Made by a program: the position numbers and the translations under genes. The notes beneath the pieces were generated by a model. It did no database searches and was not told where the DNA came from. It worked only from the letters and a program-made list of their open reading frames with translations. From assembly GCF_020037125.1 (NCBI RefSeq), contig NZ_JAIQDG010000031.1, forward strand, positions 62,001 to 126,000: a stretch of 64,000 nucleotides of DNA, given 5' to 3'. How positions within the stretch are numbered: the stretch's first letter is position 1; every line of letters starts with the position of its first letter. The DNA is from Myxococcus sp. RHSTA-1-4. GTDB taxonomy: Bacteria > Myxococcota > Myxococcia > Myxococcales > Myxococcaceae. This document shows positions 31,772 to 60,110 of this stretch, one piece after another.

Positions 31772-33487
31772 ATGAAGCGGTGGGGACTCGTCGGGCTCGT
31801 GGCGCTGGCGGCATGCGCGCCGGAGAACACGTCGTACAGGGGAGCCCAGGGTGGGGCCTGCCCGGGCATCACCGCGGGCGCGCTCACGGACGAGCTCCAG
31901 GAGCTGGCCCCCCCCGGCCACCCCGACGAGGACGGCCGCGAGGCGTTCATCATCCGCTACCGGGATGATGGCGTGTCGGCCGCCTCCCGCGTGCACCAGC
32001 TCGGCGGCAGGGTGACGGCCACCTTCCGCAACGTGCCCGCCGTGGCCGCGCGCCTGTCGCCCCAGGAGCGGGAGGCGCTGTCCCGGGACTCGAGCGTGGA
32101 GAGCATCGAGCCGGACCAGGTGTGGCACTCGCTGAACACGTCCACCCTGCCGGCCCTGGCCTTCGCGTCCGCGGCGGTGGAGGCCCGTGTGCCCGGCGAG
32201 TCCGCCAGCGGCCTGCGGCAGGTGCAGGCGGACGAGGTCTGGGACCTGGATGCGGACGGCCTGCCGGACCCGGGGCGGCCCACCGGCGCGGGCACGCGGG
32301 TGTGCATCATCGACAGCGGCCTGGACCTGGAGCACCCGGCGCTACGGGACGCGGTGGTGGCGAGCCGTGACTTCCTGGACGGCGACGACCACGCCAGCGA
32401 CGGCGTCATCGGCGCGTGGGGCAGCGGCCACGGCACGCACGTGGCGGGCATCGTCGCGGCGCGGCCGGGCGCGCGCCTCAAGGGCCTGGAGGCCGGCGGC
32501 CTGGTGGGTGTCGCGCCCGGCGCGGAGCTGGTCATCGCCCGGGTGCTGGACCTGAACGGCCGCACGCAGATGAGCATCGTCCTGACAGCGCTGGAGTACT
32601 GCGCGAGCCAGGGGGCGAGGGTGGCATCGCTGTCGCTGGGCGGAGGCGTCGCCTCGAAGACCACGCTGCAGGCCTTCCAGGCGGCGTACGCCGGGGGAAT
32701 GCTGGTGGTGGCCGCGTCGGGCAATGACGGCACCCAGGGGGTGTCCTATCCCGCGTCGGACCCGTCCGTGCTGGCGGTGGGCGCGGTGGACGACGAGGAC
32801 CGGCGGGCGGAGTTCTCCTCCGGCGGACCCGAGCTGGCGCTGGTGGCGCCGGGCGTGGACGTGCTCTCCACCTTCCCGCGCGGCCTGGGCGCCATCTCCG
32901 AGCTGGACGCGGACGAGACGCAGCCGGTGTCGCGCGCGCTGCTGTACGGGCCCACGGGCAACAAGGTGGCCCCGCTGGTGGACTGCGGCGAGGGCGAGTC
33001 GATGGAGTCGTGCAAGGGCAGCACGTGCAGCGGCTTCATCGCCTACGTGCGGCCCGGCTACCTCCCGCTCGAGGAGGTCATGGTCAACGTGATGCTGCAG
33101 GGCGCGCAGGCCATCATCATCGGCGACGAGACGGCGGAGGGCGGCCCGCGAATCCTCGCCATGCCCCGGCGGGGCCGGTGGGTGCCCACCGTCACCATCA
33201 ACCAGGCGGGCGGCACGCTGCTGCACCGGATGCCCGGGTACAACGTGCGCGTCAGCGTGACGCCGGCGGACCACACGCACATGTCCGGCACCTCCATGTC
33301 CGCGCCCTACGTCACCGGCGTGGCCGCCCTGCTGTTCAGCGCCCACCCGTCCGCCACGCCGAACCAGGTGAAGGAGGCCCTGGTGCGCACCGCGAGAGAC
33401 CTGGGTGCACCGGGCCACGACGAGGGCTACGGCCACGGCCTGGTGCAGGCCCGCCTGGCGCTGGAGGCCCTGTCCCACCTGCCGTGA
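31772..33487 (+). CDS. Subtilisin-family (S8) lipoprotein protease with PA insertion
   Basis: 571 residues. The lipobox LAAC places it in an outer or inner membrane leaflet facing the exterior. A propeptide-like region (AFIIRYRDDGVSAASRVHQL) precedes the S8 domain. The catalytic triad is complete: D180 region (CIIDSGLDLEHP), H in GSGHGTHVAG (near 219), oxyanion N in AASGNDG (near 315) and S in SGTSMSAPYV (near 506). About 130 residues between N and S (SCKGSTCSGFIAYVRPGYLP on) form a protease-associated (PA) domain that may restrict substrates; two close Cys there could form a disulfide. ATG 31772 has AAGGAG upstream. A role in extracellular protein digestion or processing is inferred. Confidence 0.92.
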   Translation: MKRWGLVGLVALAACAPENTSYRGAQGGACPGITAGALTDELQELAPPGHPDEDGREAFIIRYRDDGVSAASRVHQLGGRVTATFRNVPAVAARLSPQEREALSRDSSVESIEPDQVWHSLNTSTLPALAFASAAVEARVPGESASGLRQVQADEVWDLDADGLPDPGRPTGAGTRVCIIDSGLDLEHPALRDAVVASRDFLDGDDHASDGVIGAWGSGHGTHVAGIVAARPGARLKGLEAGGLVGVAPGAELVIARVLDLNGRTQMSIVLTALEYCASQGARVASLSLGGGVASKTTLQAFQAAYAGGMLVVAASGNDGTQGVSYPASDPSVLAVGAVDDEDRRAEFSSGGPELALVAPGVDVLSTFPRGLGAISELDADETQPVSRALLYGPTGNKVAPLVDCGEGESMESCKGSTCSGFIAYVRPGYLPLEEVMVNVMLQGAQAIIIGDETAEGGPRILAMPRRGRWVPTVTINQAGGTLLHRMPGYNVRVSVTPADHTHMSGTSMSAPYVTGVAALLFSAHPSATPNQVKEALVRTARDLGAPGHDEGYGHGLVQARLALEALSHLP

Positions 33488-33673
33488 GGGACAGGCGCCT
33501 CCGGGCAGCCGGTGACGGAGCGCGGCCGGCGGTGGGCCCGCTCCTCGTGCCGCCCCGTCCCGCCGGGTGGGGAGGACAGGCGCATCGAGTGGCCGGACCG
33601 CCGCCAGCGGAACGTTGCCGGGCCTCCCCGCGCGCGTCACGTTGCCTTTCGGACGCGGCGAAAGGAGTCCGAC

Positions 33674-47401: not shown

Positions 47402-47731
47402 ATGGCACGCACACCCCGCCCCGGCACCGCCGTCCGAGGCTCCCGCACCGGCCGGCCCATCATGGCGCTGCTGGACCTGCTGGGCCGGCGCTGGCTGCTG
47501 CGCATCGTCTGGGAGCTGCGGAGCGGCCCGCTGACGTTCCGAGCCCTGCGGGAGGCCTGCGGCGACCTGAGCCCCACGGTCCTCAACACACGGCTCAAGG
47601 AGCTGCGCGACAGCGGCCTGGTGGCGCTCGACGGGGCGGAGGGCTACGCACTCACGCCGCTCGGGCAGGAGCTGCTGGAGCGCTTCCTGCCGCTCGTCGA
47701 TTGGGCGGAGCGATGGGCGCGCAGGGGCTAA
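47402..47731 (+). CDS. HxlR-family transcriptional regulator
   Basis: 109 residues. The HxlR winged helix is shown by LLDLLGRRWLLRIVWELRSGPLTFRALREACGDLSPTVLNTRLKELRDSGLVALDG (shown as segments: LLGRRWLLRIVWEL, FRALREACGD, TVLNTRLKELRDSGLV). These dimeric regulators usually sense electrophiles or aromatic compounds; many use a Cys near the N-terminus, but here the only candidate is the Cys of REACGD. ATG 47402 is preceded by AAGGGAG. It is divergent from the CMD gene across the twin operators. Confidence 0.9.
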   Translation: MARTPRPGTAVRGSRTGRPIMALLDLLGRRWLLRIVWELRSGPLTFRALREACGDLSPTVLNTRLKELRDSGLVALDGAEGYALTPLGQELLERFLPLVDWAERWARRG

Positions 47732-47889
47732 AGCTCCGTGGAGCAACGGCAAGGCGCGTTGGATGAAGCTCGGCACATGCACTCCACGTCGCCCCAATCC
47801 GTTTTGTAGCCCTTCCATGCAGCGAAGGCGCTCTTGAGTTGCTGCGTGGGTAGAGAGTGAACGTCGCCCAGATGCTTCAGGAGAAACGG

Positions 47890-48477
47890 ATGTTCAAGGA
47901 ATGTGTGCTCGCGGGGCTTGTGGTCGTGTGCTCCGGATGCGCCCGACCCACGGCGACATGGAAGGGGACGGTCGACTGGCCGGAGGACGAGACAGACCCA
48001 TCGGTCAAAGCCGTCACGGCTCCCATGGAGGCCGGTGCCGCGCTCGCGGCGGCGGGGGCCATCCGCGAGTTGGTACGGACCAACACCGACCCGGGGCTGT
48101 TCTGGGGTTGCTCCAGCCCCGAGCAGGGCCTGGATGTGGCCGTCTTCACCGGCCCGACGCAGGGGCTCTATTACGTCGTGGTGGAGCAACGCTTCCATCG
48201 ATGTGGCGGCCCCAGCGGGCGAGTTCTCGACTGGCGCCATGTATATGCCGTGACTCCGCAGGGCGAAGTCGTGGCCGAAGCCCCTCCGCCCCAATCAAGT
48301 CCTGCCCCGTCAGCGCCGGCCCCGTCTCCTGCCCATCCTCACCCAAGCACTGGAAGCAAAGCGCCTGCCGCACCTGTGCCGTCGGCGCCCGTGCCTTCTC
48401 CCACATCTTCCGAGCTGGTGCCGGACTCAGTCAGGACGCGGATGAGTCCTGCCGCGGAGCCCCCGGCCGTGCAGTAG
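47890..48477 (+). CDS. Lipoprotein with Pro-rich tail
   Basis: 195 residues. The export signal ends in a Cys (VVVCSGC). The globular part (about 20-130) has two Cys (FWGCSSPEQ, HRCGGPSG) and ends GRVLDWRHVYAVTPQG. The C-terminal 70 residues are Pro/Ala/Ser-rich (PAPSAPAPSPAHPH), typical of a flexible wall-spanning segment. No family is recognised. ATG 47890 has a strong AGGAG site and is preferred over GTG 47857. Confidence 0.65.
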   Translation: MFKECVLAGLVVVCSGCARPTATWKGTVDWPEDETDPSVKAVTAPMEAGAALAAAGAIRELVRTNTDPGLFWGCSSPEQGLDVAVFTGPTQGLYYVVVEQRFHRCGGPSGRVLDWRHVYAVTPQGEVVAEAPPPQSSPAPSAPAPSPAHPHPSTGSKAPAAPVPSAPVPSPTSSELVPDSVRTRMSPAAEPPAVQ

Positions 48478-48787
48478 CCGGAACCGTACCTCGGGCATGT
48501 TCGGAGTGTCCCGCGCCTGAGGACATGCGAGGCCCCAGCCCCGTCGTCCAGGCCACGAATTCCCGCCAGGCCGGCCCCCCGAGCGCCCGTGGCCGGAACG
48601 GAATGTCCATTCCGCGTGGGCTGCCAGCTCCGCACTGCTCAAGGGCCCAGCCTGCCCGGCATGGCAGCCTCCCGGATGACCCTGCCCGGAATGGAGCCTC
48701 CGTTCCGCATGACCTGCCAGGTCCTCGCCAGTCGAGGGCCTTCGCCACCTCGCCCCCGGAGGCCCCGTCGATGCCCCCATGGCGCAC
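48478..48787. other. Intergenic region with two related inverted repeats
   Basis: No gene is seen. CGGAATG-TC-CATTCCG (48599-48614) and CGGAATGGA-GCC-TCCGTTCCG (48687-48707, one mismatched pair) are similar palindromes about 90 nt apart, each followed by a CGC(G/A)TG...CTGCCAG segment, suggesting a duplicated unit of roughly 90 nt. It borders the lower-GC PtuAB-like locus. Confidence 0.4.
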
Positions 48788-49597
48788 TCACCAGGTCAAT
48801 GCTTCTGGAGCCTTCGCGAAGAGCAGCGTCAGCTCCGGCATGGACGCGTGCTGGCGCTTCATCTCGAACCAGACCGTGGGGTGCTGACGCGCACGGATGT
48901 CCTCGGCGAGCCTGTCGAGATGTGCCCGAGGCAGACCTTCCGCCTTGTCCCGGACGTAGCCCTTCAGATGGGCGAGGTAATCCAGGTAGGCCGAGCGCCG
49001 GGCCTGCGGCAGCCAGTCCCGGATGTTCAGTTGGAGTACGCGTATCGTGTAGTCGGCGCGTGCATGCTCCACCGGCCCGAGCTTCGCCCGTGGGGTGAAC
49101 CAGAAGGTATCCGTCAGGTCTAACGATAGGTACTCGGTCGGGTCTTCGACTCGTGGGTCGATGAATACAGCCTTGCCTGAAATGGGAGGTACGACGGGGG
49201 CGTTCCGTGCCCGCGCCACGCTCGTCAGGACACCCGTCCCTTCAGCGAAGACGGCAAAATGGTTATTCTTGGGTCCATTGCAGGGCCCGCACGCGTAGAG
49301 GTAGTTCGTCCATGCGAAGACCAGCTCGGGATAGAGCGTCTTGGGACGGATGTGCTCCACCTCGTCGGCGGCGGAGTCCTCGCAGTACGCACAACGGCGC
49401 GCACCGGAGTTCATCATCGACAGCGTCGCCTTGACGCTATCGAAGGTCCTGTTGCCCTTCTTGTTCAACGCCGCGAACCGGTCCTTCGCGCGGGCCACAC
49501 GTGCCGTGTAATCGGGCTGGGCGTCCACATCCCGCTGATAGTCAGCGAGGCTGGCGAGAGCATCTCCTGGCAGTGGGACGTCTGGGAGCCGGATCAC
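48788..49597 (-). CDS. HNH nuclease, PtuB-like (Septu defence system)
   Basis: 269 residues. The HNH core is C69-x2-C72, E81-H82 (EHIRPKTLYPE), N98 (WTNYLYACGPCN) with the second zinc-binding C103-x2-C106, and N112-H113 (KNNHF). This treble-clef type with structural Zn and E-H-I-R-P-K motif matches PtuB and retron-associated HNH nucleases. The C-terminal part (LDYLAHLKGYVRDKAEGLPR) is helical. Its ATG 49597 overlaps the stop of the ATPase gene by 4 nt (ATGA), a strong sign of coupled translation. In Septu, PtuA and PtuB form a complex that degrades phage DNA. The region is less GC-rich than the neighbours, which suggests transfer. Confidence 0.82.
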   Translation of the reverse strand: MIRLPDVPLPGDALASLADYQRDVDAQPDYTARVARAKDRFAALNKKGNRTFDSVKATLSMMNSGARRCAYCEDSAADEVEHIRPKTLYPELVFAWTNYLYACGPCNGPKNNHFAVFAEGTGVLTSVARARNAPVVPPISGKAVFIDPRVEDPTEYLSLDLTDTFWFTPRAKLGPVEHARADYTIRVLQLNIRDWLPQARRSAYLDYLAHLKGYVRDKAEGLPRAHLDRLAEDIRARQHPTVWFEMKRQHASMPELTLLFAKAPEALTW

Positions 49598-50910
49598 TTC
49601 TCCGTGACCTCCACGCTGGGAGACGGAAGCGCGCTAGCCGCGGTCGGGAGCCGCGCACGTAGCGCCTGCTGCTCCGCGCGCTCCTCTTCGGCCAGTCCTT
49701 CCGCGAGCTCCTTCTGATTGAGGATGGCGAGCCGTTCGAGTTGCTCCAGCGCCTCGGGCGAGCGGGTAGGTACCTCTCCAAAGGCGCCGGTGCTGTAGGC
49801 ATCCAGGACGTTGCCGTAGAGTAGCCGGTCACGTGCGACGCCAGTGACCATGCCGCCTCGCTCCTCGCTTCCGGGACGTGGCAGCCGGAAGATGCTGCCC
49901 ACCGTCGCGGCCTGACAGATGAGCGGGCTGTGGGTCGTCACGATGAACTGGAGATGAGGGAAGTGCTTGCGGAACCAGTGGCCGACCCGGCGCTGCCAGG
50001 TGGGGTGCAGGTGTGCGTCGACTTCATCGATGAGGACAATACCGGGGGCCTGAACCGTTGTTGGATCGTCAAGAGCGAAGATGTATTCAGCGCCGTACGT
50101 CCTCACGAGCTGGCGGATCAACTCGAAGGTCATGCTCAGGATGGAGCGGTAGCCGTCGCTCAGGTTCTCGACCGGTACGTCACAGCCGTTGCCGTCGATG
50201 AAGCGCACACCACTCGAGGAAATGGACTCCAGTCGGGCTTCGTGAGGAAGAAAGTCCGGCTGGTTGATGAACTGCTTGAGAGCATCGAGCAGTTCCCCCT
50301 CCTTGCTCCCCCCCTCTAGCTTCTTGAACTGGAGCAGTTTGAGCCACTCCAGGCACTCCGTCAGTGCGACGGACTCTCCGAAGACCGACAGGTGCCGTGC
50401 CAGCTTGGGGTTGGAATAGAAGAGCTTCTCCTGGTCCTTGTCGCCTCCCGTGAACCGGCGAAAGGGGCCATACGAAGCGCAGAACCAACCGTAACCATCT
50501 CCCCATACGTTGCGGCCGGGGTCGGGGTTGAGCGGCATGCTGGACAGGTTTACCTGGTCGGCGTGAGTGCTGGAACGATCCAGCTTCAGCCCGGCCTGAA
50601 GGTCGACGTTCTTGGGCTTCTGTCCGCCTCTCGAGAAGCGGTCCCAAGCATCGTCCCAATCCAGCGTGAGGTGAATCGAGCCGGACTGCGCTCCCCAGCG
50701 CAGCCACTCGTTCCAGTCCTGACGCAGGGCAATTGCCTCGTTCGCCCCCACCAAGGCGAGGGCGATGGCCCGAAGGACCGAACTCTTGCCAGCGCCGTTG
50801 TCCCCGATGATGACGTGCCACCCCGCCAAAGAGGAAGCCGAGGAAGGCGGTTCCCACTCGAGCGCGTCAATCGAACGGATGTTCGTGAGGACGACTTTCT
50901 TCAGGTACAT
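49594..50910 (-). CDS. AAA/ABC-type ATPase, PtuA-like (Septu defence system)
   Basis: 438 residues. It is an SMC/RecF-like ATPase: Walker A GDNGAGKSS (36-44), D-loop/signature ENLSDGYRSIL (near 248), Walker B VLIDEVDAHLHPTW (near 290) and TTHSPLI (switch His, near 323). The C-terminal region has acidic coils (LAEGLAEEERAEQQAL). The gene precedes an HNH nuclease with ATGA overlap; this pair defines Septu (PtuAB). No TOPRIM domain (as in OLD/GajA) is seen, which argues against Gabija. The start at 50910 begins the conserved MYLKKVVLTN; no good ribosome binding site precedes it, so an upstream start is possible. Confidence 0.82.
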   Translation of the reverse strand: MYLKKVVLTNIRSIDALEWEPPSSASSLAGWHVIIGDNGAGKSSVLRAIALALVGANEAIALRQDWNEWLRWGAQSGSIHLTLDWDDAWDRFSRGGQKPKNVDLQAGLKLDRSSTHADQVNLSSMPLNPDPGRNVWGDGYGWFCASYGPFRRFTGGDKDQEKLFYSNPKLARHLSVFGESVALTECLEWLKLLQFKKLEGGSKEGELLDALKQFINQPDFLPHEARLESISSSGVRFIDGNGCDVPVENLSDGYRSILSMTFELIRQLVRTYGAEYIFALDDPTTVQAPGIVLIDEVDAHLHPTWQRRVGHWFRKHFPHLQFIVTTHSPLICQAATVGSIFRLPRPGSEERGGMVTGVARDRLLYGNVLDAYSTGAFGEVPTRSPEALEQLERLAILNQKELAEGLAEEERAEQQALRARLPTAASALPSPSVEVTEK

Positions 50911-52197: not shown

Positions 52198-52716
52198 TCA
52201 TCGCGACATGTACACGCGGCTCGGCACGCCTTCGTAGTCGATGACGCGGTCGAGCCGCATGCCGAGCCGCTCGGCCACGCGGATGGAGGGCATGTTCACC
52301 TCGTTGATGATGGCCACCACGGGAACTTCCGGAACATGCTCCCCTGCCAGTGACAGGGCCACGCGCGCCACCTCCGTCGCGTACCCCGAGCCCCACGCCT
52401 CGGGAGCGAGCCGGTAGGCCAGGTTCAGCACCGGCTGCCCTTCGAGCTCCCTGTGCCGGACGCCACCGAAGCCGATGACGGTGCCGGGCGCATCGAGCCG
52501 CTCCACCGCCCAGTACCCCACGCCGCGCTGCCGCCAGTCGCCCAGCCACAAATCCAGCCGGACGCGCGCCGCGTCGCGGGAGGGCATCGGGCCCACGGGG
52601 TTGTACCGGTTCGTCTCCGGGTCCGCGTGGATGGTGAAGATGGGCTCCAGGTCCGTGTCACGGATGGCACGGAGCAGGAGCCGCTCGGTCTTCTGCCAGG
52701 CGAAGGCTTGCGTCAT
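52198..52716 (-). CDS. GNAT N-acetyltransferase
   Basis: 172 residues, RimJ/RimL-like. TERLLLRAIRDTDLEPIFTIHADPE is the typical start. The acetyl-CoA binding region reads LAPEAWGSGYATEVARVAL, where GxGxAT-like residues form the pyrophosphate loop (motif A), followed by NEVNMPSIRVAERLGMRLD (both given in part). It would transfer an acetyl group from acetyl-CoA to an amine, perhaps a protein N-terminus; the substrate is unknown. Its ATG 52716 overlaps the argS stop (ATGA), so it is co-translated with argS. Confidence 0.88.
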   Translation of the reverse strand: MTQAFAWQKTERLLLRAIRDTDLEPIFTIHADPETNRYNPVGPMPSRDAARVRLDLWLGDWRQRGVGYWAVERLDAPGTVIGFGGVRHRELEGQPVLNLAYRLAPEAWGSGYATEVARVALSLAGEHVPEVPVVAIINEVNMPSIRVAERLGMRLDRVIDYEGVPSRVYMSR

Positions 52717-54506
52717 GTCGCGGCGGCCTGTTCTTCTTCCTCGGGCGCCTCCATGACCTCGGGGGCCTGGATGCCCAGGATGCCGAACGCGGCGCGCAGC
52801 ACCTGCTTGAGCGCGGCGACCATGGCCAGGCGGCCCTGCGTCTTCTCCGTGTCGGCGCTGATGATGGGGTCCGACTTGTAGCGCGTGTAGTAGCTGTGGA
52901 AGTCGGAGATGAGCTCCTGGCAGAAGTAGAGCACGTGGTGTGGCTCCAGGTTGGCCGCGGCGGACTGCACCACGTCGGGCAGCCGGCTCATCTTCTGGAG
53001 CATCACCTTCTCTTCCGGCAGCACCAGCCGCGCGAGCTGCGCGTCCGTCACGCGGTCCACGCCCACGAAGGGCTGCCCCTTCTCCTCGGCCTTGCGCAGG
53101 ATGGCGGCGCACCGGGCGTGGCCGTACTGGAAGTAGAACACCGGGTTGGTGCTCTTCTGCTCGCGCACGGCGTCCAGGTCGAAGTCGAACTGCGCGTTGG
53201 CCGTCTTCATCAGGAAGAGGAAGCGGCACGCGTCGGCGCCGGCCTCCTCGATGAGGTCCGCCAGCTCGAACACCGTGCCCTTGCGCTTGCTGACCTTGAC
53301 CTCCTCACCGCCGCGGGTGATGCGGACAATCTGCACCAGCACGAACTTCAGCTTCTTGATGTCGAAGCCCAGCAGGTGCATGCCGGCCTCGATGCGAGGC
53401 ACGTGGCCCGCGTGGTCGGCGCCGAACACGTCAATCATCAGGTCGAAGCCGCGGTCGAACTTCTCCTTGTGGTACGCGAGGTCCGCCGTCAGGTACACGG
53501 GCGTGCCGTCATGCCGCAGGATGATGCGGTCCTCGTCATCCTTGAGCTGCGTGGTCATCAGGAACGTGCCGCCGCGCTGCCGGTCGGAGTACTGCGCGGC
53601 CTTGGAGTCCTCGCTCCGGACCTTCGCGTCCTTGCGGCGGGCCTCGGTGGCCTCGTAGGTGGCGCCGCGCTCGCGGTACACGTCCACGATGGAGCGCACC
53701 TTGTTGCTCGCGTGCAGGGACGCCTCGCTGAAGAACACGTCGTGCCGGATGCCGGCCATCTCCAGGGTGGCCCGGATGGCCTTGAGGTTCTCCCGGATGC
53801 CCACCGCCATGGCCTCGGGCAGCCACTCCGACTCGGGCGCGGTGAGGTAGCGCTCCCCGACCTCCTCCCGCCACGTCTTGGCGATGTCGATGACGTACGC
53901 CGCGGGGTACTCGCCCTCGACGAGCTCGACCTGCTGGCCGAAGAGCTGGCGGTAGCGCTTGTGGACGGTGCGGCCCAGCGTCTCCACCTGCTTGCCGTAG
54001 TCGTTGATGTAGAACTCGCGCGTCACGTCGTGGCCGGCGGCGTCCAGGAGGCGCGCGAGGGCGTCACCCATGAACGCGCCGCGCGCGTGGCCGATGTGGA
54101 CCGGGCCGGTGGGGTTGGCGGAGACGAACTCGACCTGCACGCGCTTGCCGGAGGACTTCGCGGGCTGGCGGCCGAAGGACTCACCGGCGCGCAGCACGTC
54201 CCGGGCGACCGTCTGGAAGACGGTGTCCTTGAGGCGGAAGTTGAGGAAGCCGGGGCCGGCGCGCTCCACCTTGGTGACGATGCCGTCCTTGTCGACGAGG
54301 TTGGCGATGATGGCATCGGCGATGTCGCCCGGCTTCTTGCCGGCGGCCTTGGACATGACCATGGCGACGTTGCAGCTCCAGTCGCCGTGCTCGGGGTTCT
54401 TCGGCACCTCGATGGCGTAGCCCGGCACCTGCTCGAACGAGAGCACTCCCTTGGACTTCAGCGCCGACAGCGTCTCATCGACGACGGCGCGCACCTTCTG
54501 TCGCAT
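52713..54506 (-). CDS. argS: Arginyl-tRNA synthetase
   Basis: 597 residues, close to the usual bacterial length. Class I signatures are present: HIGHARG (near 139) in the family's PTGPVHIGH segment and KVSKRKG (near 400) in place of KMSKS. The N-terminal additional domain typical of ArgRS, the DYGKQ motif and a C-terminal anticodon-binding helical domain ending QVLRAAFGILGIQAPEVM are also seen. It charges tRNA-Arg with arginine in the cytoplasm. ATG 54506 has GGGAGAAT upstream. A GNAT gene follows with a 4-nt overlap. Housekeeping gene, not transferred in appearance. Confidence 0.97.
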   Translation of the reverse strand: MRQKVRAVVDETLSALKSKGVLSFEQVPGYAIEVPKNPEHGDWSCNVAMVMSKAAGKKPGDIADAIIANLVDKDGIVTKVERAGPGFLNFRLKDTVFQTVARDVLRAGESFGRQPAKSSGKRVQVEFVSANPTGPVHIGHARGAFMGDALARLLDAAGHDVTREFYINDYGKQVETLGRTVHKRYRQLFGQQVELVEGEYPAAYVIDIAKTWREEVGERYLTAPESEWLPEAMAVGIRENLKAIRATLEMAGIRHDVFFSEASLHASNKVRSIVDVYRERGATYEATEARRKDAKVRSEDSKAAQYSDRQRGGTFLMTTQLKDDEDRIILRHDGTPVYLTADLAYHKEKFDRGFDLMIDVFGADHAGHVPRIEAGMHLLGFDIKKLKFVLVQIVRITRGGEEVKVSKRKGTVFELADLIEEAGADACRFLFLMKTANAQFDFDLDAVREQKSTNPVFYFQYGHARCAAILRKAEEKGQPFVGVDRVTDAQLARLVLPEEKVMLQKMSRLPDVVQSAAANLEPHHVLYFCQELISDFHSYYTRYKSDPIISADTEKTQGRLAMVAALKQVLRAAFGILGIQAPEVMEAPEEEEQAAAT

Positions 54507-55351: not shown

Positions 55352-55495
55352 CGCCCCCCATTGGCCCCGTTTCGCCCCCTGGCGGTGGCCGCACGGAAGC
55401 CCCGGCGAAGTCACCTCCCAGGTCGGTTCAGGGAGCACTCGCGGAGCCGCCAGCCTGTTTGCCGGGTGTCAGACCTGCCGGATAGCTTGCTCCGC

Positions 55496-56581
55496 ATGCC
55501 GGACATCCGCCTGCCCGCCGAAGCGAAGTACAAGACCGAGCTCGAAGCCCTCGCCGCCCACGACGACAAGCCCCGCCCACCAGGTTGGGCGCTCTCGCCA
55601 CGCGCGGTGGAGACCTACATCCTGGGCAGCCCCAAGCCCGTGGGGGGCGTGCCGATTACGCCCAAGTACATCGGAGACAAGAGCCTCATCCAGGTGTGCA
55701 TCGCCACGCTGGCCTCGGACCGCGCGCTGATGCTGGTCGGTGAGCCCGGCACCGCGAAGAGCTGGCTCTCCGAGCACCTCTCCGCCGCCATCAGCGGCAC
55801 CTCGGCCCTCATCGTCCAGGGCACCGCGGGCACCAGCGAGGACCACCTCAAGTACTCGTGGAACTACGCGCTGCTGCTCGCCCAGGGGCCATCCGCGGCG
55901 GCCCTGGTCCCCTCTCCCGTGCTGCGAGCCATGAAGCAGGGCAAGTTCGCCCGCTTCGAGGAGGTGACGCGCACGTCGCCCGAGATTCAGGACTCACTCA
56001 TCTCCATCCTCTCGGAGAAGCAGGTCTCCATCCCTGAGCTAGGCGAGGTGGTCAGCGCGCAGCGGGGCTTCAACCTCATCGCCACCGCCAACACGCGCGA
56101 CCGTGGCGTCAACGAGATGAGCGCCGCGCTCAAGCGCCGCTTCAACTTCGTCACCGTACCGGTGGTGGAGGACCTGGAGCAGGAGATTCAAATCGTCACC
56201 AGGCGCGAGGCGGAGCTGCGCAATGACTATCAGGTCGGCGTGCCGCCGCCGGAGGACCTGTCGCGGCTGTTGCTGACGCTCTTCCAGGAGCTGCGCAAGG
56301 GCGTGACGAAGGACGGCAAGACGAAGGTGCGCACGCCGGGCGCGGTGCTGTCCACGGCGGAGGCCATCAGCGTCCTGTTCAACAGCTCCATCCTCGCGGA
56401 GCAGTTCGGCGGCGGGAAGGTGACGCCGCACGAGCTGGCCGCGTCGCTGGTGGGCGCGGTGGTGAAAGAGCAGGAGGACGACGTGAAGGCCCTGCGCGAG
56501 TACATGGAGACGGTGGCCAAGGGCCGCACGGGCCCGTGGAAGGAGCTGTACACCGCGAGCAAGAAGCTGCTGAGGGGCTGA
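55496..56581 (+). CDS. MoxR-like AAA+ ATPase, first gene of a YehLMPQ-type operon
   Basis: 361 residues, cytoplasmic. The MoxR AAA+ core has Walker A GEPGTAKS (about 82-89), a modified Walker B segment FARFEEVTR (Glu-Glu) and sensor 1 IATANTRDRG. MoxR ATPases act as chaperone-like remodelers together with a vWA partner, here encoded two genes downstream. The gene is followed by DUF5682, with stop and start overlapping by one base (TGATG at 56579-56583), so translation is coupled. Gene order MoxR-DUF5682-vWA-SWIM is that of E. coli yehL-yehM-yehP-yehQ. ATG 55496 starts the conserved part; no strong ribosome binding site is visible. Confidence 0.88.
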   Translation: MPDIRLPAEAKYKTELEALAAHDDKPRPPGWALSPRAVETYILGSPKPVGGVPITPKYIGDKSLIQVCIATLASDRALMLVGEPGTAKSWLSEHLSAAISGTSALIVQGTAGTSEDHLKYSWNYALLLAQGPSAAALVPSPVLRAMKQGKFARFEEVTRTSPEIQDSLISILSEKQVSIPELGEVVSAQRGFNLIATANTRDRGVNEMSAALKRRFNFVTVPVVEDLEQEIQIVTRREAELRNDYQVGVPPPEDLSRLLLTLFQELRKGVTKDGKTKVRTPGAVLSTAEAISVLFNSSILAEQFGGGKVTPHELAASLVGAVVKEQEDDVKALREYMETVAKGRTGPWKELYTASKKLLRG

Positions 56582-58902
56582 TGGACCTCGCCCTGCTCTC
56601 CCGGGTGCACCTGTTCCCGGTGCGCCACCACTCGCCGCGCACCACGTCGGTGCTGGGCCAATGGTTGACACGTGTCCGGCCGGAAGTCGTCCTCATCGAA
56701 GGCCCGTGTGACGCGTCCGGAATGGTGGACGTGCTGTGTGACGAGGCCACGAAGCCACCCGTGGCCATCCTCGGCTACCGGACGGACGGCACGCCGCGCT
56801 CGGCGCTGTGGCCCTTCGCGGAGTACTCGCCGGAGTACGCGGCGCTGCGCTGGGCGAAGGCGAACAAGGCCCGCGCGGAGTTCATCGACATCCCCGTCGG
56901 CGTCAGCCTCGAGGTGGACCGCGAGGAGGAGGGCGCCGAGCCCGGAGTCGAGGAGGAGGAAACGGAGTCCGCCGCCACCTCCGCCCCGGAAGTCTGGGAG
57001 GAGCCCATCTCGGAGCGCTTCGCGCGCGAGCGGGGCTACCGCTCCTTCGAGGAATTGTGGGAGGCCCTCTTCGAGGCACCGGACTGGACGCCGGAGGGCT
57101 TCCGCCCGGTGCTGCTGGCGTGGGCGGACGTGCTGAACGCGGGGCCCCGGCGCGAGTACCACCGCTGGCGTGACGCCTTCATGGCGCGCAAGGTGCTGGA
57201 GGTGGTGGCGTCGGGCGTGCCGCCGGAGAAGGTGGCGGTGGTCGCGGGCGCTGCGCATGTGGCGGCCTTCATCGCGAAGGACGTGGACGCGGCGATGGAG
57301 GCGAAGCTGCCGAAGGGCGTGCCCTGCGCGGTGACGGTGATTCCGTACAGCTTCCCCCGGCTGGCGGAGCAGCTCGGGTATGGCGCTGGCAACCGGGCGC
57401 CGCACTTCTACCAGAAGGCGCACGAGGCGAAGTGCGACTTCCGGCGCGCGACGCTGGAGGTGCTCATCGACTTCGCGGGGCACCTGCGCATGCGAGGCTT
57501 CACCGCGTCGCTGTCGGACGTGCTGGAGGCGTACCGGCTGGCGCTGACGCTGGCGGACCTGCGCGAGAAGAGCGCGCCCGGCCTGGACGAACTGCGCGAG
57601 GCCACGGTGGCCACGCTGTGCCGCGGGGACGCCACGCATGTGGACGGCTTCCTGTGGAAGAGCGTCGTCGGCCACCAGGTGGGCCGGGTGGCCAGCCGCA
57701 TCGGGCAGAACTCCCTACAGGCCGAGTTCTGGCGCGAGGTGGACGCGCGCCGACTGCCGCGCACGGACAGCCCGGAGACGTTCTCCCTGCGGCTGAACAA
57801 CGACGTGGAGGTGGGCTCCTCCGTCTTCCTGCACCGGCTGCGCGTGGCGGGCATTCCGTACGCGTCGCTGCAAGGCGCTGGGCAGCAGCGAGGAGCGCCG
57901 CCGGTGGAGTCCGGGGGTTACGCCGCGCTCACCCGGGTGCGCGAGTCCTGGCAGGCGCAGTGGACGCCTTCCACGGACGTGGCGCTGGTGGAGAAGATTG
58001 TCCTCGGAGACACGCTGGAGGCGGTGACGACACGCGTCCTCCAGGAGCGCCTGTCCGAGGCGAAGGCCACGGCCGGCGCGGCGGAGGTGCTGCTGGAGTC
58101 GGTGATTACCGGATGCCCGCAGACGGTGGCCTCCGCGCTGCGAGTCTGTGACGCGCACGCGGCCACGGACTCGGACCTGCCCTCGCTGGCGTCGGCCGCG
58201 CGGGCCCTGTCCGGGCTGGTGGCGTACGGCACGTCGCGGGCGCACGCGGACGTGGGCGACGAAGCGGTGGCCGTGCTGTGTGAGAAGACCTTCAACCGCG
58301 CGCTGCTGCGGGTCCGCGACGCCAGCTCCTGCGCACCGGACGCGGTGGGCGCGGTGCTGGAGGCGCTGCGCACGCTGCACGAGGTGGCGCTGGCACAGCC
58401 CCGGGCGGACAAGGCTGGATGGCTGGCCGAGGCGCGCGCGCTGATGGAGAGCCACGCGGTGCACCCGGCCACGTCGGGACTGGCCACGGGACTGCTGTAC
58501 CTCGCGCAAGAGCTGCCCGAGTCGGACGTGGCGCTGGAGGTGGGGCGCCGGCTGTCGCTGGCGGTGGAGCCGGAGGCGGGCGCGGCGTACCTGGAAGGCT
58601 TCCTGCAGGTGAACGCGCTGGTGCTGGTGAAGAGCCGCGAGGTGGTGAAGGCGCTGGACGACTTCCTCTCCAGCGTGGACGCCGAGCGCTTCCGTCAGAC
58701 CCTCCCGGTATTGAGGAGGGCACTGGCCGCGCTGGGTTCCACGGAGCGCCGCTACCTGATGGAGAACGTGGTGGCGGTGCGCCAGCTCGGGACGCAGGCG
58801 CGGGCGGTGAAGGGCGTGCTGGAAGAGAAGGACAAGGAGAAGCTCAAGGACATGAGCGCGGAGCTGGGCAAGGCGCTCGATGACCTGGACGACCTGCTAT
58901 GA
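56581..58902 (+). CDS. DUF5682 protein (YehM-like)
   Basis: 773 residues. The N-terminus (VHLFPVRHHSPRTTSVLGQWL with VVLIEGPCDA) matches DUF5682, which is predicted to have a TIKI/erythromycin esterase-like fold with H-H and E-G-P acidic/His residues, so hydrolase activity is possible. An acidic insertion lies at about 125-155. From about 400 the protein is helical. Genes for MoxR (upstream, one-base overlap) and vWA (downstream, ATGA overlap) enclose it, so the three are translationally coupled, and a complex is likely. It has no signal peptide. The biochemical function is unknown. Confidence 0.85.
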   Translation: MDLALLSRVHLFPVRHHSPRTTSVLGQWLTRVRPEVVLIEGPCDASGMVDVLCDEATKPPVAILGYRTDGTPRSALWPFAEYSPEYAALRWAKANKARAEFIDIPVGVSLEVDREEEGAEPGVEEEETESAATSAPEVWEEPISERFARERGYRSFEELWEALFEAPDWTPEGFRPVLLAWADVLNAGPRREYHRWRDAFMARKVLEVVASGVPPEKVAVVAGAAHVAAFIAKDVDAAMEAKLPKGVPCAVTVIPYSFPRLAEQLGYGAGNRAPHFYQKAHEAKCDFRRATLEVLIDFAGHLRMRGFTASLSDVLEAYRLALTLADLREKSAPGLDELREATVATLCRGDATHVDGFLWKSVVGHQVGRVASRIGQNSLQAEFWREVDARRLPRTDSPETFSLRLNNDVEVGSSVFLHRLRVAGIPYASLQGAGQQRGAPPVESGGYAALTRVRESWQAQWTPSTDVALVEKIVLGDTLEAVTTRVLQERLSEAKATAGAAEVLLESVITGCPQTVASALRVCDAHAATDSDLPSLASAARALSGLVAYGTSRAHADVGDEAVAVLCEKTFNRALLRVRDASSCAPDAVGAVLEALRTLHEVALAQPRADKAGWLAEARALMESHAVHPATSGLATGLLYLAQELPESDVALEVGRRLSLAVEPEAGAAYLEGFLQVNALVLVKSREVVKALDDFLSSVDAERFRQTLPVLRRALAALGSTERRYLMENVVAVRQLGTQARAVKGVLEEKDKEKLKDMSAELGKALDDLDDLL

Positions 58903-60110
58903 GCGTGGACCCCAAGGAGCTATCGGAGAAGGACCGGGATGCGCTCCTGCGCTGGCGGCTGGCGCTGGGCCCCGCGGCGGAGAAGACGGGCGCGTGTCCC
59001 TCGCTGCGCTCGCTGGGCGGTGGCGCCGGCGCGGTGGGCGTGGACGAGGGCGACCTGGAGGAACTGGATGACGCGCTCTCCTTCGTCTACGGCGAGAAGA
59101 GCGCGGGCTCGGCGGGCTCCCGGCCATACATCCCCAAGTGGCTGGGCGCGCTGCGAGGCTTCTTCCGCGACGACGTGATTGCGCTCGTCCAGAAGGACGC
59201 GATTGAGAAGAAGGGGCTGACGCAGCTCCTCTTCGAGCCGGAGACGCTGCCCTTCCTGGACAAGAACGTGGAGCTGGTGACGACGCTGGTCAGCGCGCGC
59301 GGGCTCATCCCGGACCAGGCGAAGGACATCGCCCGGCAGATTGTCCGCGAGGTGGTGGACGACCTCCGCAAGAAGCTGGAGTCATCCATCCGCACGGCGG
59401 TGTTCGGCGCGCTGAAGCGGGACAGGACGAGCCCGCTGCCGATTGCACGCAACATCGACTGGAAGCGCACGATTCGGCAGAACCTGAAGGGCTGGGACGC
59501 GGAGCGCAAGCGGCTGATTCCGGAGCGCTTCTACTTCTGGCCCAACCAGCGGCGGCACCACGAGTGGGACGTGACGCTGGTGGTGGACCAGTCCGGCTCC
59601 ATGGCGGAGAGCGTGGTGTACAGCTCCGTCATGGCGGCCATCTTCGCGTCGCTGGACGTGCTGCGTACGAGCCTCGTCCTGTTCGACACGGAAGTCGTGG
59701 ACATGACGCCCATGCTGGCGGACCCGGTGGAGGTGCTCTTCACCGCGCAGCTCGGGGGCGGCACGGACATCAACCGCGCGGTGGCGTACGCGCAGGCCCA
59801 CCACGTCCAGCGGCCGGAGAAGACGCTCTTCATCCTGATTACCGACCTGTACGAGGGCGGCAACGCCGAGGAGCTGGTGGCGCGGCTGCGGCAGCTCGTG
59901 GACTCGAAGGCGAAGGTGCTGTGCCTGCTGGCGCTGTCGGATGGAGGGAAGCCCACGTACGACCACGCCATGGCGGAGCATCTCACCGCACTGGGGATTC
60001 CGTGCTTCGGGTGCACGCCGCGCAAGCTGGTGGACGTGGTGGAGCGGGTGATGCGCAACCAGGACCTGGCGCCCCTGCTGGCGTCGGACAAGGAGACGCG
60101 CCATGGCTGA
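58899..60110 (+). CDS. vWA-domain protein (YehP-like), MoxR partner
   Basis: 403 residues. The N-terminal 220 residues are helical and charged. The C-terminal vWA fold has an intact MIDAS: VVDQSGSMAE (near 230), GGGTDI (near 288) and LITDLYEGG (near 314). Classical MoxR systems use such a vWA partner to recruit substrates. The gene overlaps DUF5682 by 4 nt and the SWIM gene by 8 nt, so all four proteins should be made in similar amounts. Start ATG 58899 is fixed by the overlap. Whether it binds metal or a chaperone client needs biochemical testing. Confidence 0.9.
   Translation: MSVDPKELSEKDRDALLRWRLALGPAAEKTGACPSLRSLGGGAGAVGVDEGDLEELDDALSFVYGEKSAGSAGSRPYIPKWLGALRGFFRDDVIALVQKDAIEKKGLTQLLFEPETLPFLDKNVELVTTLVSARGLIPDQAKDIARQIVREVVDDLRKKLESSIRTAVFGALKRDRTSPLPIARNIDWKRTIRQNLKGWDAERKRLIPERFYFWPNQRRHHEWDVTLVVDQSGSMAESVVYSSVMAAIFASLDVLRTSLVLFDTEVVDMTPMLADPVEVLFTAQLGGGTDINRAVAYAQAHHVQRPEKTLFILITDLYEGGNAEELVARLRQLVDSKAKVLCLLALSDGGKPTYDHAMAEHLTALGIPCFGCTPRKLVDVVERVMRNQDLAPLLASDKETRHG

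What the first reader, a model, noticed from the sequence alone, without database searches (positions are those of the whole stretch)
48788..50910. Septu (PtuAB)-like anti-phage module in a lower-GC island
SMC-type ATPase (complete Walker A, signature, Walker B and switch His) followed by an HNH nuclease with ATGA overlap. The DNA is visibly less GC-rich and uses more A/T-ending codons than the genes on both sides. This is the gene pair of Septu. No reverse transcriptase (retron) is seen beside it.
Basis: partly seen in the sequence, partly recalled or inferred. Interest (0 to 1): 0.68.

Follow-up and report, generated by a model that had tools for sequence, protein, structure and literature searches.

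The report
A Septu anti-phage gene pair
This is an intact copy of a known two-gene bacterial defence system against viruses (Septu), carried on a low-GC patch of a myxobacterial chromosome; it is a well-supported but ordinary example.

Summary
The finding is right. Window 50910..49594 (-) encodes a 438-aa SMC/ABC-type ATPase, and 49597..48788 (-) a 269-aa HNH nuclease. They match PADLOC PtuA (550.8 bits) and PtuB (386.1 bits) over nearly the whole models. AlphaFold models match solved PtuA and PtuB chains well ahead of other families. ATPase and HNH motifs are intact. A PtuB gene follows PtuA in 78 of the 80 best related loci. No reverse transcriptase was found on the contig, so it is Septu type I in PADLOC's sense, not a retron.

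The pair is the lowest-GC 2.1-kb stretch of the window (63.0% against 71.1%) and sits in a locus whose content differs between relatives. Whether PtuB cuts tRNA or DNA here is undecided.

One less ordinary feature is a fast-changing but well-folded stretch of PtuA, residues 85-147: dN/dS 0.26-0.30, against 0.056 for residues 148-438, in two sets of relatives. It is a candidate trigger-recognition surface. The system is a new member of a known kind, of low interest.

The parts
49594..50910 (-). ptuA: 438-aa SMC/ABC-like ATPase
   Evidence: PADLOC PDLC00269 550.8 bits over residues 1-428; AF2 pLDDT 92.5, best solved matches PtuA chains, Z 27-28
48788..49597 (-). ptuB: 269-aa HNH nuclease, GTG start
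   Evidence: PADLOC PDLC00340 386.1 bits, residues 2-269; AF2 pLDDT 97.2, best match chain G of the E. coli Septu complex 8eea, Z 17.9
49594..49597 (-). 4-base overlap GTGA joining ptuA stop and ptuB start
   Evidence: sequence
50779..50805 (-). PtuA Walker A GDNGAGKSS (residues 36-44)
   Evidence: K42 invariant in the 72 rows of A3
50146..50166 (-). PtuA signature motif NLSDGYR (residues 249-255)
50020..50040 (-). PtuA Walker B IVLIDEV (residues 291-297; D295 E296)
   Evidence: D295 and E296 invariant in A3
49927..49938 (-). PtuA switch-His loop TTHS (residues 325-328)
   Evidence: H327 invariant in A3
50470..50658 (-). PtuA fast-evolving segment, residues 85-147 (predicted strands and loops)
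   Evidence: omega 0.260 and 0.295 against 0.056 for residues 148-438 in two sets of relatives; pLDDT blocks 84-96
49268..49393 (-). PtuB HNH core: C69, C72, H82, N98, C103, C106, K110
   Evidence: each invariant in 66 of 66 rows of A4

Best explanation
It is a Septu type I (PtuA-PtuB) anti-phage system. Inferred from characterised relatives (partly recalled): PtuA forms an ATP-controlled oligomer that carries the HNH nuclease PtuB and keeps it in check. Phage infection changes the state of PtuA, and PtuB then cuts an essential nucleic acid, so the infected cell stops making phage (abortive infection). The target is not shown here; I judge tRNA cleavage somewhat more likely (about 0.5) than DNA cleavage (about 0.35). 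Shown here: two intact, overlapping, co-conserved genes with complete ATPase and HNH motifs and the predicted folds of PtuA and PtuB, with PtuA under purifying selection. Not shown: activity, trigger, target, oligomeric state.
For: PADLOC PtuA 550.8 bits and PtuB 386.1 bits. In the pdb_via alignments, the PtuA model's first 20 rows are chains of retron I-A and Septu entries (Z 28.3-22.7); the first row of another family (condensin) is Z 20.9. The PtuB model's first ten rows are chains of Septu or retron I-A entries, led by 8eea_G (Z 17.9, 2.7 A over 204 residues); the next row is Z 5.7. A PtuB profile hit follows PtuA in 78 of 80 related loci; of the two misses, L087 ends inside PtuA. Septu EcB88 needs PtuA K43 and D316 and PtuB H75 and N91 (PMC13096335 passages). 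I equate these with K42, D295, H82 and N98 here from motif position and the equal 16-residue H-N spacing; no residue-level alignment to that protein was made. No RVT_1 match on the window's contig. Patchy occurrence, differing surroundings and low GC fit a defence cassette. For the tRNA lean: the PtuB profile scores retron Ec78/Eco7 PtuB, whose co-expression with PtuA depletes tRNA-Tyr, at 71.1 bits, against 39.1 for the PtuB of 8ee7/8eea, the E. coli Septu; PtuAB of E. [quoted passage not shown]
Against: No activity data for this pair. NCBIfam cut-offs for the retron Ec78 equivalogs are not reached (PtuA 114.6 of 500, PtuB 44.5 of 150 bits), nor is TIGR02646 (45.9 of 52.15). Pfam HNH models score below cut-off. 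No sigma-70-like promoter was found (a consensus scan says little at 71% GC). The PtuA matches on contigs C123, C74 and C45 of the same genome (L003-L005, partial) have no PtuB match beside them, so a match to the ATPase core alone is not proof of Septu. The tRNA lean rests on sequence only: by fold, the E. coli Septu PtuB ranks first, tied with Ec78 within 1 Z, and the PtuA profile does not separate the two.
Confidence: 0.9

Rival explanations
1. It is a two-gene type IV (modification-directed) restriction enzyme of the ATPase+HNH kind rather than Septu.
For: PADLOC mREase_IV ATPase model 162.2 bits and HNH model 46.1 bits on these proteins.
Against: The PtuA and PtuB models score 550.8 and 386.1 bits on the same proteins. 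No modified-base reader domain was seen among the Pfam matches.
Confidence: 0.04
2. It is the effector half of a retron (type I-A) whose reverse transcriptase and msr/msd were missed or lie elsewhere.
For: The best sequence matches in the PDB include retron Ec78 PtuA and PtuB; the genome has four RVT_1 matches on other contigs.
Against: No RVT_1 match on the contig. Two Rfam matches at 46-54 kb, both below their gathering scores (a weak test for msr-msd). Retron I-A PtuA chains begin to match at residue 45, 61 or 64, so they carry about 44-63 extra N-terminal residues, which this PtuA and E. coli Septu PtuA lack. A crude motif scan for reverse transcriptases flagged 2 of 80 related loci (L094, L108), both more than 3 kb from the pair.
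Confidence: 0.03
3. It is a degenerate or non-defensive SMC-like ATPase/nuclease pair, for example for plasmid exclusion or repair.
For: No functional test exists; SMC heads are the next-best folds.
Against: Catalytic motifs intact; PtuA omega about 0.1; 78 of 80 related loci keep the pairing.
Confidence: 0.03

Closest known systems
Septu type I (PtuA-PtuB), e.g. E. coli Septu (PDB 8ee4, 8eea) and Septu EcB88
   Same: gene order (order in others: passages), both folds over nearly the whole chain, Walker and HNH residues, no reverse transcriptase on the contig
   Different: low sequence identity (19-24% in the structural alignments to 8ee4, 8eea and 8sux); target and trigger untested
Retron type I-A (Ec78/Eco7, Ec83/Eco4) PtuA-PtuB effectors
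   Same: PtuA and PtuB folds; PtuB profile closest by sequence to Ec78 PtuB
   Different: no reverse transcriptase on the contig, no N-terminal PtuA extension, NCBIfam Ec78 equivalog cut-offs not met
PADLOC mREase_IV ATPase + HNH
   Same: ATPase and HNH gene pair
   Different: scores far lower than the Septu models

Membership tests
Septu type I | PtuA-family ATPase | tested here: met
   PDLC00269 550.8 bits, model positions 1-436 of 446; fold Z 27.5 to 8ee4_E
Septu type I | adjacent PtuB-family HNH nuclease | tested here: met
   PDLC00340 386.1 bits, 2-268 of 268; fold Z 17.9 to 8eea_G
Septu type I | intact Walker A/B and H-N-H catalytic residues | tested here: met
   K42, D295, E296 invariant in A3; H82, N98 invariant in A4
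Septu type I | no reverse transcriptase beside the pair (PADLOC type II has one; PMC8565338 passages) | tested here: met
   4 RVT_1 matches in the genome, none on contig C59
Septu type I | protects against phage | not testable with these tools
   needs a bench experiment
Retron type I-A | reverse transcriptase next to ptuAB | tested here: not met
Retron type I-A | msr-msd non-coding RNA | tested here: inconclusive
   Rfam only, no match above gathering score at 46-54 kb; msr-msd genes vary and may not be covered
Retron type I-A | NCBIfam Ec78 PtuA and PtuB equivalog cut-offs | tested here: not met
   114.6 of 500 and 44.5 of 150 bits
mREase_IV (type IV restriction) | best family match | tested here: not met
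   162.2 and 46.1 bits against 550.8 and 386.1 for Septu
mREase_IV (type IV restriction) | cleaves modified DNA only | not testable with these tools
   needs biochemistry

The most novel reading that the evidence does not exclude
Residues 85-147 of PtuA are a diversifying recognition surface that sets which phage trigger fires the system, while the nuclease partner is exchanged between lineages. Septu would then be a modular sensor plus swappable effector under an arms race. Evidence: the segment's omega is about five times that of residues 148-438 in two sets of relatives, at only slightly raised synonymous divergence, although it is predicted to be well folded; and the PtuA and PtuB data reject each other's trees. 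Omega stays below 1, so relaxed constraint on an exposed region is not excluded.
Probability: 0.3. Interest if true: 0.45.

Novelty: new member of a known kind. Interest (0 to 1): 0.2.

Why it matters
It places a complete Septu type I system in a variable chromosomal locus of a myxobacterium (same GTDB genus as Pyxidicoccus fallax), with close copies in related species and more distant ones across phyla. The fast-evolving PtuA segment, if it is the sensor, would make the open question of what triggers Septu testable by segment swaps between natural homologues in a laboratory strain.

Tried and rejected
Retron: rejected because there is no RVT_1 match on the contig; Rfam gave only two sub-threshold matches, and the motif scan of related loci is crude. 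Type IV restriction: rejected on scores. A mobile element carrying the pair: the only tRNA found in the window is at 33449-33539, repeats around the pair are short and imperfect (the longest direct pair is 26 nt at 81%), and none of ten neighbouring proteins matches a transposase or integrase in Pfam; the rest of the window was not scanned for them. Defence island: of eight neighbouring proteins scanned, one has a PADLOC match, HxlR to Csa3 at E 0.0009, which I read as a shared helix-turn-helix. Phages: 7 of 50,697 records match, none over 80% of the query. Plasmids: 97 of 72,556 records, 21 of them with at least 80% of PtuA covered, all under 60% identity.

Literature: no paper in the library holds both 'PtuA' and 'hypervariable'; one holds 'Septu', 'antiphage' and 'positive selection', a Staphylococcus aureus survey seen as a listing. 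Searches for Septu with myxobacteria, Myxococcus or Myxococcota gave 6, 166 and 2 papers, seen as listings only (the 15 listed of the 166 concern cell division, polarity or related topics, the term matching word starts such as 'septum'). None of the listed titles is about Septu in myxobacteria. Other listings. Read as passages only: PMC13096335, PMC11555353, PMC8565338. The structural paper PMC12318543 is not held; what I say of the PtuA-PtuB oligomer rests on its title in a reference list, PDB entry titles and recall.

Limits and rows dropped. A1 and A2 hold 23 of the 29 loci L006-L034 each. The omega sets hold 7 sequences each: set 1 is six genus-g1 genomes plus G101 of genus g8; set 2 is seven genus-g6 genomes, with L018 (G077) left out; columns with more than half gaps were dropped. 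The tree sets hold 18 loci; L011 (broken PtuB frame), L015, L018 and L026-L034 were left out. A3 used 71 of the 72 loci that one search listed (L118 dropped) and A4 65 of 68 (L091, L103, L129 dropped). In one search at most 8 candidates a genome were scored.

Full report
What is there. On the minus strand, 50910..49594 encodes a 438-aa protein and 49597..48788 a 269-aa protein. The 438-aa start (MYLKKV) is the conserved one: M1 and Y2 are invariant in the 24 rows of A1; the open frame runs on to 51015. The first protein has Walker A GDNGAGKSS, signature LSDGYR, Walker B IVLIDEV and TTHS. The second has C69, C72, H82, N98, C103, C106 and K110, each invariant in 66 of 66 aligned PtuB sequences.

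Composition. The pair has GC 0.6298 against 0.7110 for the window, and none of 619 windows of the same length, taken every 100 bases, is lower. Third-position GC is 0.78 in both genes, against 0.88-0.94 in six neighbours. The lower GC largely travels with the cassette: in 10 related loci measured, the pair is below its surroundings in 10, by 0.05-0.10 in seven, by 0.03 in G101 and by only about 0.01 in G120 and G131.

Family. PADLOC gives PtuA 550.8 bits and PtuB 386.1 bits, over nearly the whole models; the next family, mREase_IV, reaches 162.2 and 46.1. NCBIfam's Ec78 retron equivalogs match below their cut-offs, and Pfam gives generic ATPase families and sub-threshold HNH. AlphaFold models (pLDDT 92.5 and 97.2) were compared with solved chains. 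The PtuA model's first 20 rows are chains of retron I-A or Septu entries (Z 28.3-22.7, with one more such row at 20.1), followed by condensin and cohesin heads at Z 20.9 and less. The PtuB model's first ten rows are chains of Septu or retron I-A entries (Z 17.9-13.6), led by the E. coli Septu complex, and the next is a phage HNH enzyme at Z 5.7. Retron PtuA chains begin to match at residue 45, 61 or 64, while E. coli Septu PtuA matches from residue 1, as this one does. Residues needed for defence in Septu EcB88 (PtuA K43 and D316, PtuB H75 and N91; PMC13096335 passages) appear to correspond to K42, D295, H82 and N98. That correspondence is my inference from the motifs and the equal H-N spacing.

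Distribution. Of 195 genomes of the phylum, 53 match PtuA at E <= 1e-10, many of them only in the ATPase core. A PtuB profile hit lies at or just after the end of PtuA, on the same strand, in 78 of these 80. L087 ends inside PtuA; L133 has a PtuA whose longest open piece is partial, and no PtuB hit. Of the loci, 29 of 29 from other genomes (L006-L034, PtuA identity 25-83%) have a PtuB match. In the window's own genome L002 also has one (contig C90; PtuA-like 27-33%, PtuB-like 30%), while L003-L005, partial ATPase matches, have none.

No reverse transcriptase. RVT_1 matches in the genome lie on contigs C76, C123, C46 and C127, not on the window's C59. Rfam gives two matches in 46-54 kb, both below their families' gathering scores. 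By PADLOC's definition (passages of PMC8565338), a pair without the reverse transcriptase is Septu type I.

The site. Genes on the two sides of the pair (GNAT, DUF3088, hydrolase; HxlR, CMD, mlaF) recur together in relatives. HxlR at E <= 1e-15 is in 7 of 27 genomes of the genus. The interval holds this Septu in 3 of the 7: in G000; in G116, next to HxlR; and in G138, about 11 kb from HxlR with other genes between. It holds other DNA without a PtuA match in 4 (G113, G123, G127, G132). Of 17 related Septu loci fetched (9-19 kb each), 2 share these flanks (L035, L041); 15 show none of them within the stretch fetched, apart from weak mlaF paralogues in L043. G116 is Pyxidicoccus fallax DSM 14698, judged by its identical 42465-base contig. 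There HxlR ends about 15-20 bases from PtuB, while the window has a further 1.06 kb (47728-48786) with a small lipoprotein-like gene of a family found at several places in these genomes. No transposase, integrase or boundary repeats were recognised next to the pair, so exchange by homologous recombination in the flanks is the simplest account (inference).

Selection. Whole-gene omega of PtuA is 0.098 and 0.120 in two sets of relatives (7 sequences each). Residues 148-438 have 0.056 in both, residues 1-84 have 0.106 and 0.137, and residues 85-147 have 0.260 and 0.295. In set 1, pairwise counts show the same: pN is 0.38 and 0.28 in residues 91-120 and 121-150, against 0.03-0.19 elsewhere, while pS is 0.61 and 0.66 against 0.39-0.63. 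PtuB shows no such peak (pN 0.08-0.22 along the protein). The model predicts residues 85-147 as strands and loops with block pLDDT 84-96, so the segment is not simply disordered. Omega below 1 means that positive selection is not shown.

Partner exchange. In 18 loci the PtuA and PtuB trees conflict. The PtuA data reject the PtuB tree (AU p = 0.003) and the PtuB data reject the PtuA tree (AU p = 8e-6); for instance, G118 PtuB groups with G120, G131 and G128 with 99% support, while its PtuA does not group with them alone. This fits recombination between the two genes. Model misfit in the fast-evolving segment was not excluded.

Mechanism. Known: expression of retron-Eco7 PtuAB depletes tRNA-Tyr; retron-Eco4 likely does not target tRNA; PtuAB of E. 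[quoted passage not shown] Septu EcB88 cleaves the tRNA-Tyr variable loop and behaves as abortive infection (PMC13096335 passages). Here the PtuB profile fits Ec78/Eco7 PtuB best (71.1 bits, against 39.1 for the E. coli Septu PtuB), the PtuA profile does not separate them, and the fold comparison ties them. I therefore lean to tRNA cleavage but do not claim it.

Verdict. This is a Septu type I system, a new member of a known kind. The fast-evolving PtuA segment is the part most likely to interest a specialist.

Noticed in passing
52713-54506 (-): A second, divergent arginyl-tRNA synthetase. All 27 genus genomes have a higher-scoring argS elsewhere, but only G000 and G116 have this extra one (E <= 1e-50, 95% identical), in both about 2-3 kb from Septu.
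   Followed up: partly
47728-48786: About 1.06 kb absent from the same site in Pyxidicoccus fallax (G116), carrying a 195-206 aa lipoprotein-like gene without Pfam match. The gene has 7 matches in this genome and matches in 24 of 27 genus genomes, some with stops inside.
   Followed up: partly
48.4-51.1 kb; L035-L038, L041, L055-L057: Variable locus between hydrolase/DUF3088/GNAT and HxlR/CMD/mlaF: Septu in 3 of the 7 genus genomes that have the HxlR side, other DNA in 4.
   Followed up: partly
L020, L021, L022 (G120, G131, G128): A PtuA clade with altered signature (LGDGF or LGDSF) and, in L021, Tyr in place of the switch His; L021 and L022 also lack about five residues near position 192. The ATPase may be impaired while the PtuB HNH residues stay intact.
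   Followed up: no
L011 (G133): The PtuB match falls in two overlapping pieces in different frames, so the gene looks broken.
   Followed up: no
L190 (G000:C90:66000-83000): A second, distant PtuA/PtuB-like pair in the same genome (27-33% and 30% identity over parts of the proteins).
   Followed up: no
55361-60110 (+): Three-gene set: MoxR-like AAA ATPase, DUF5682 protein and CoxE-like VWA protein; no PADLOC match at E <= 0.001.
   Followed up: no
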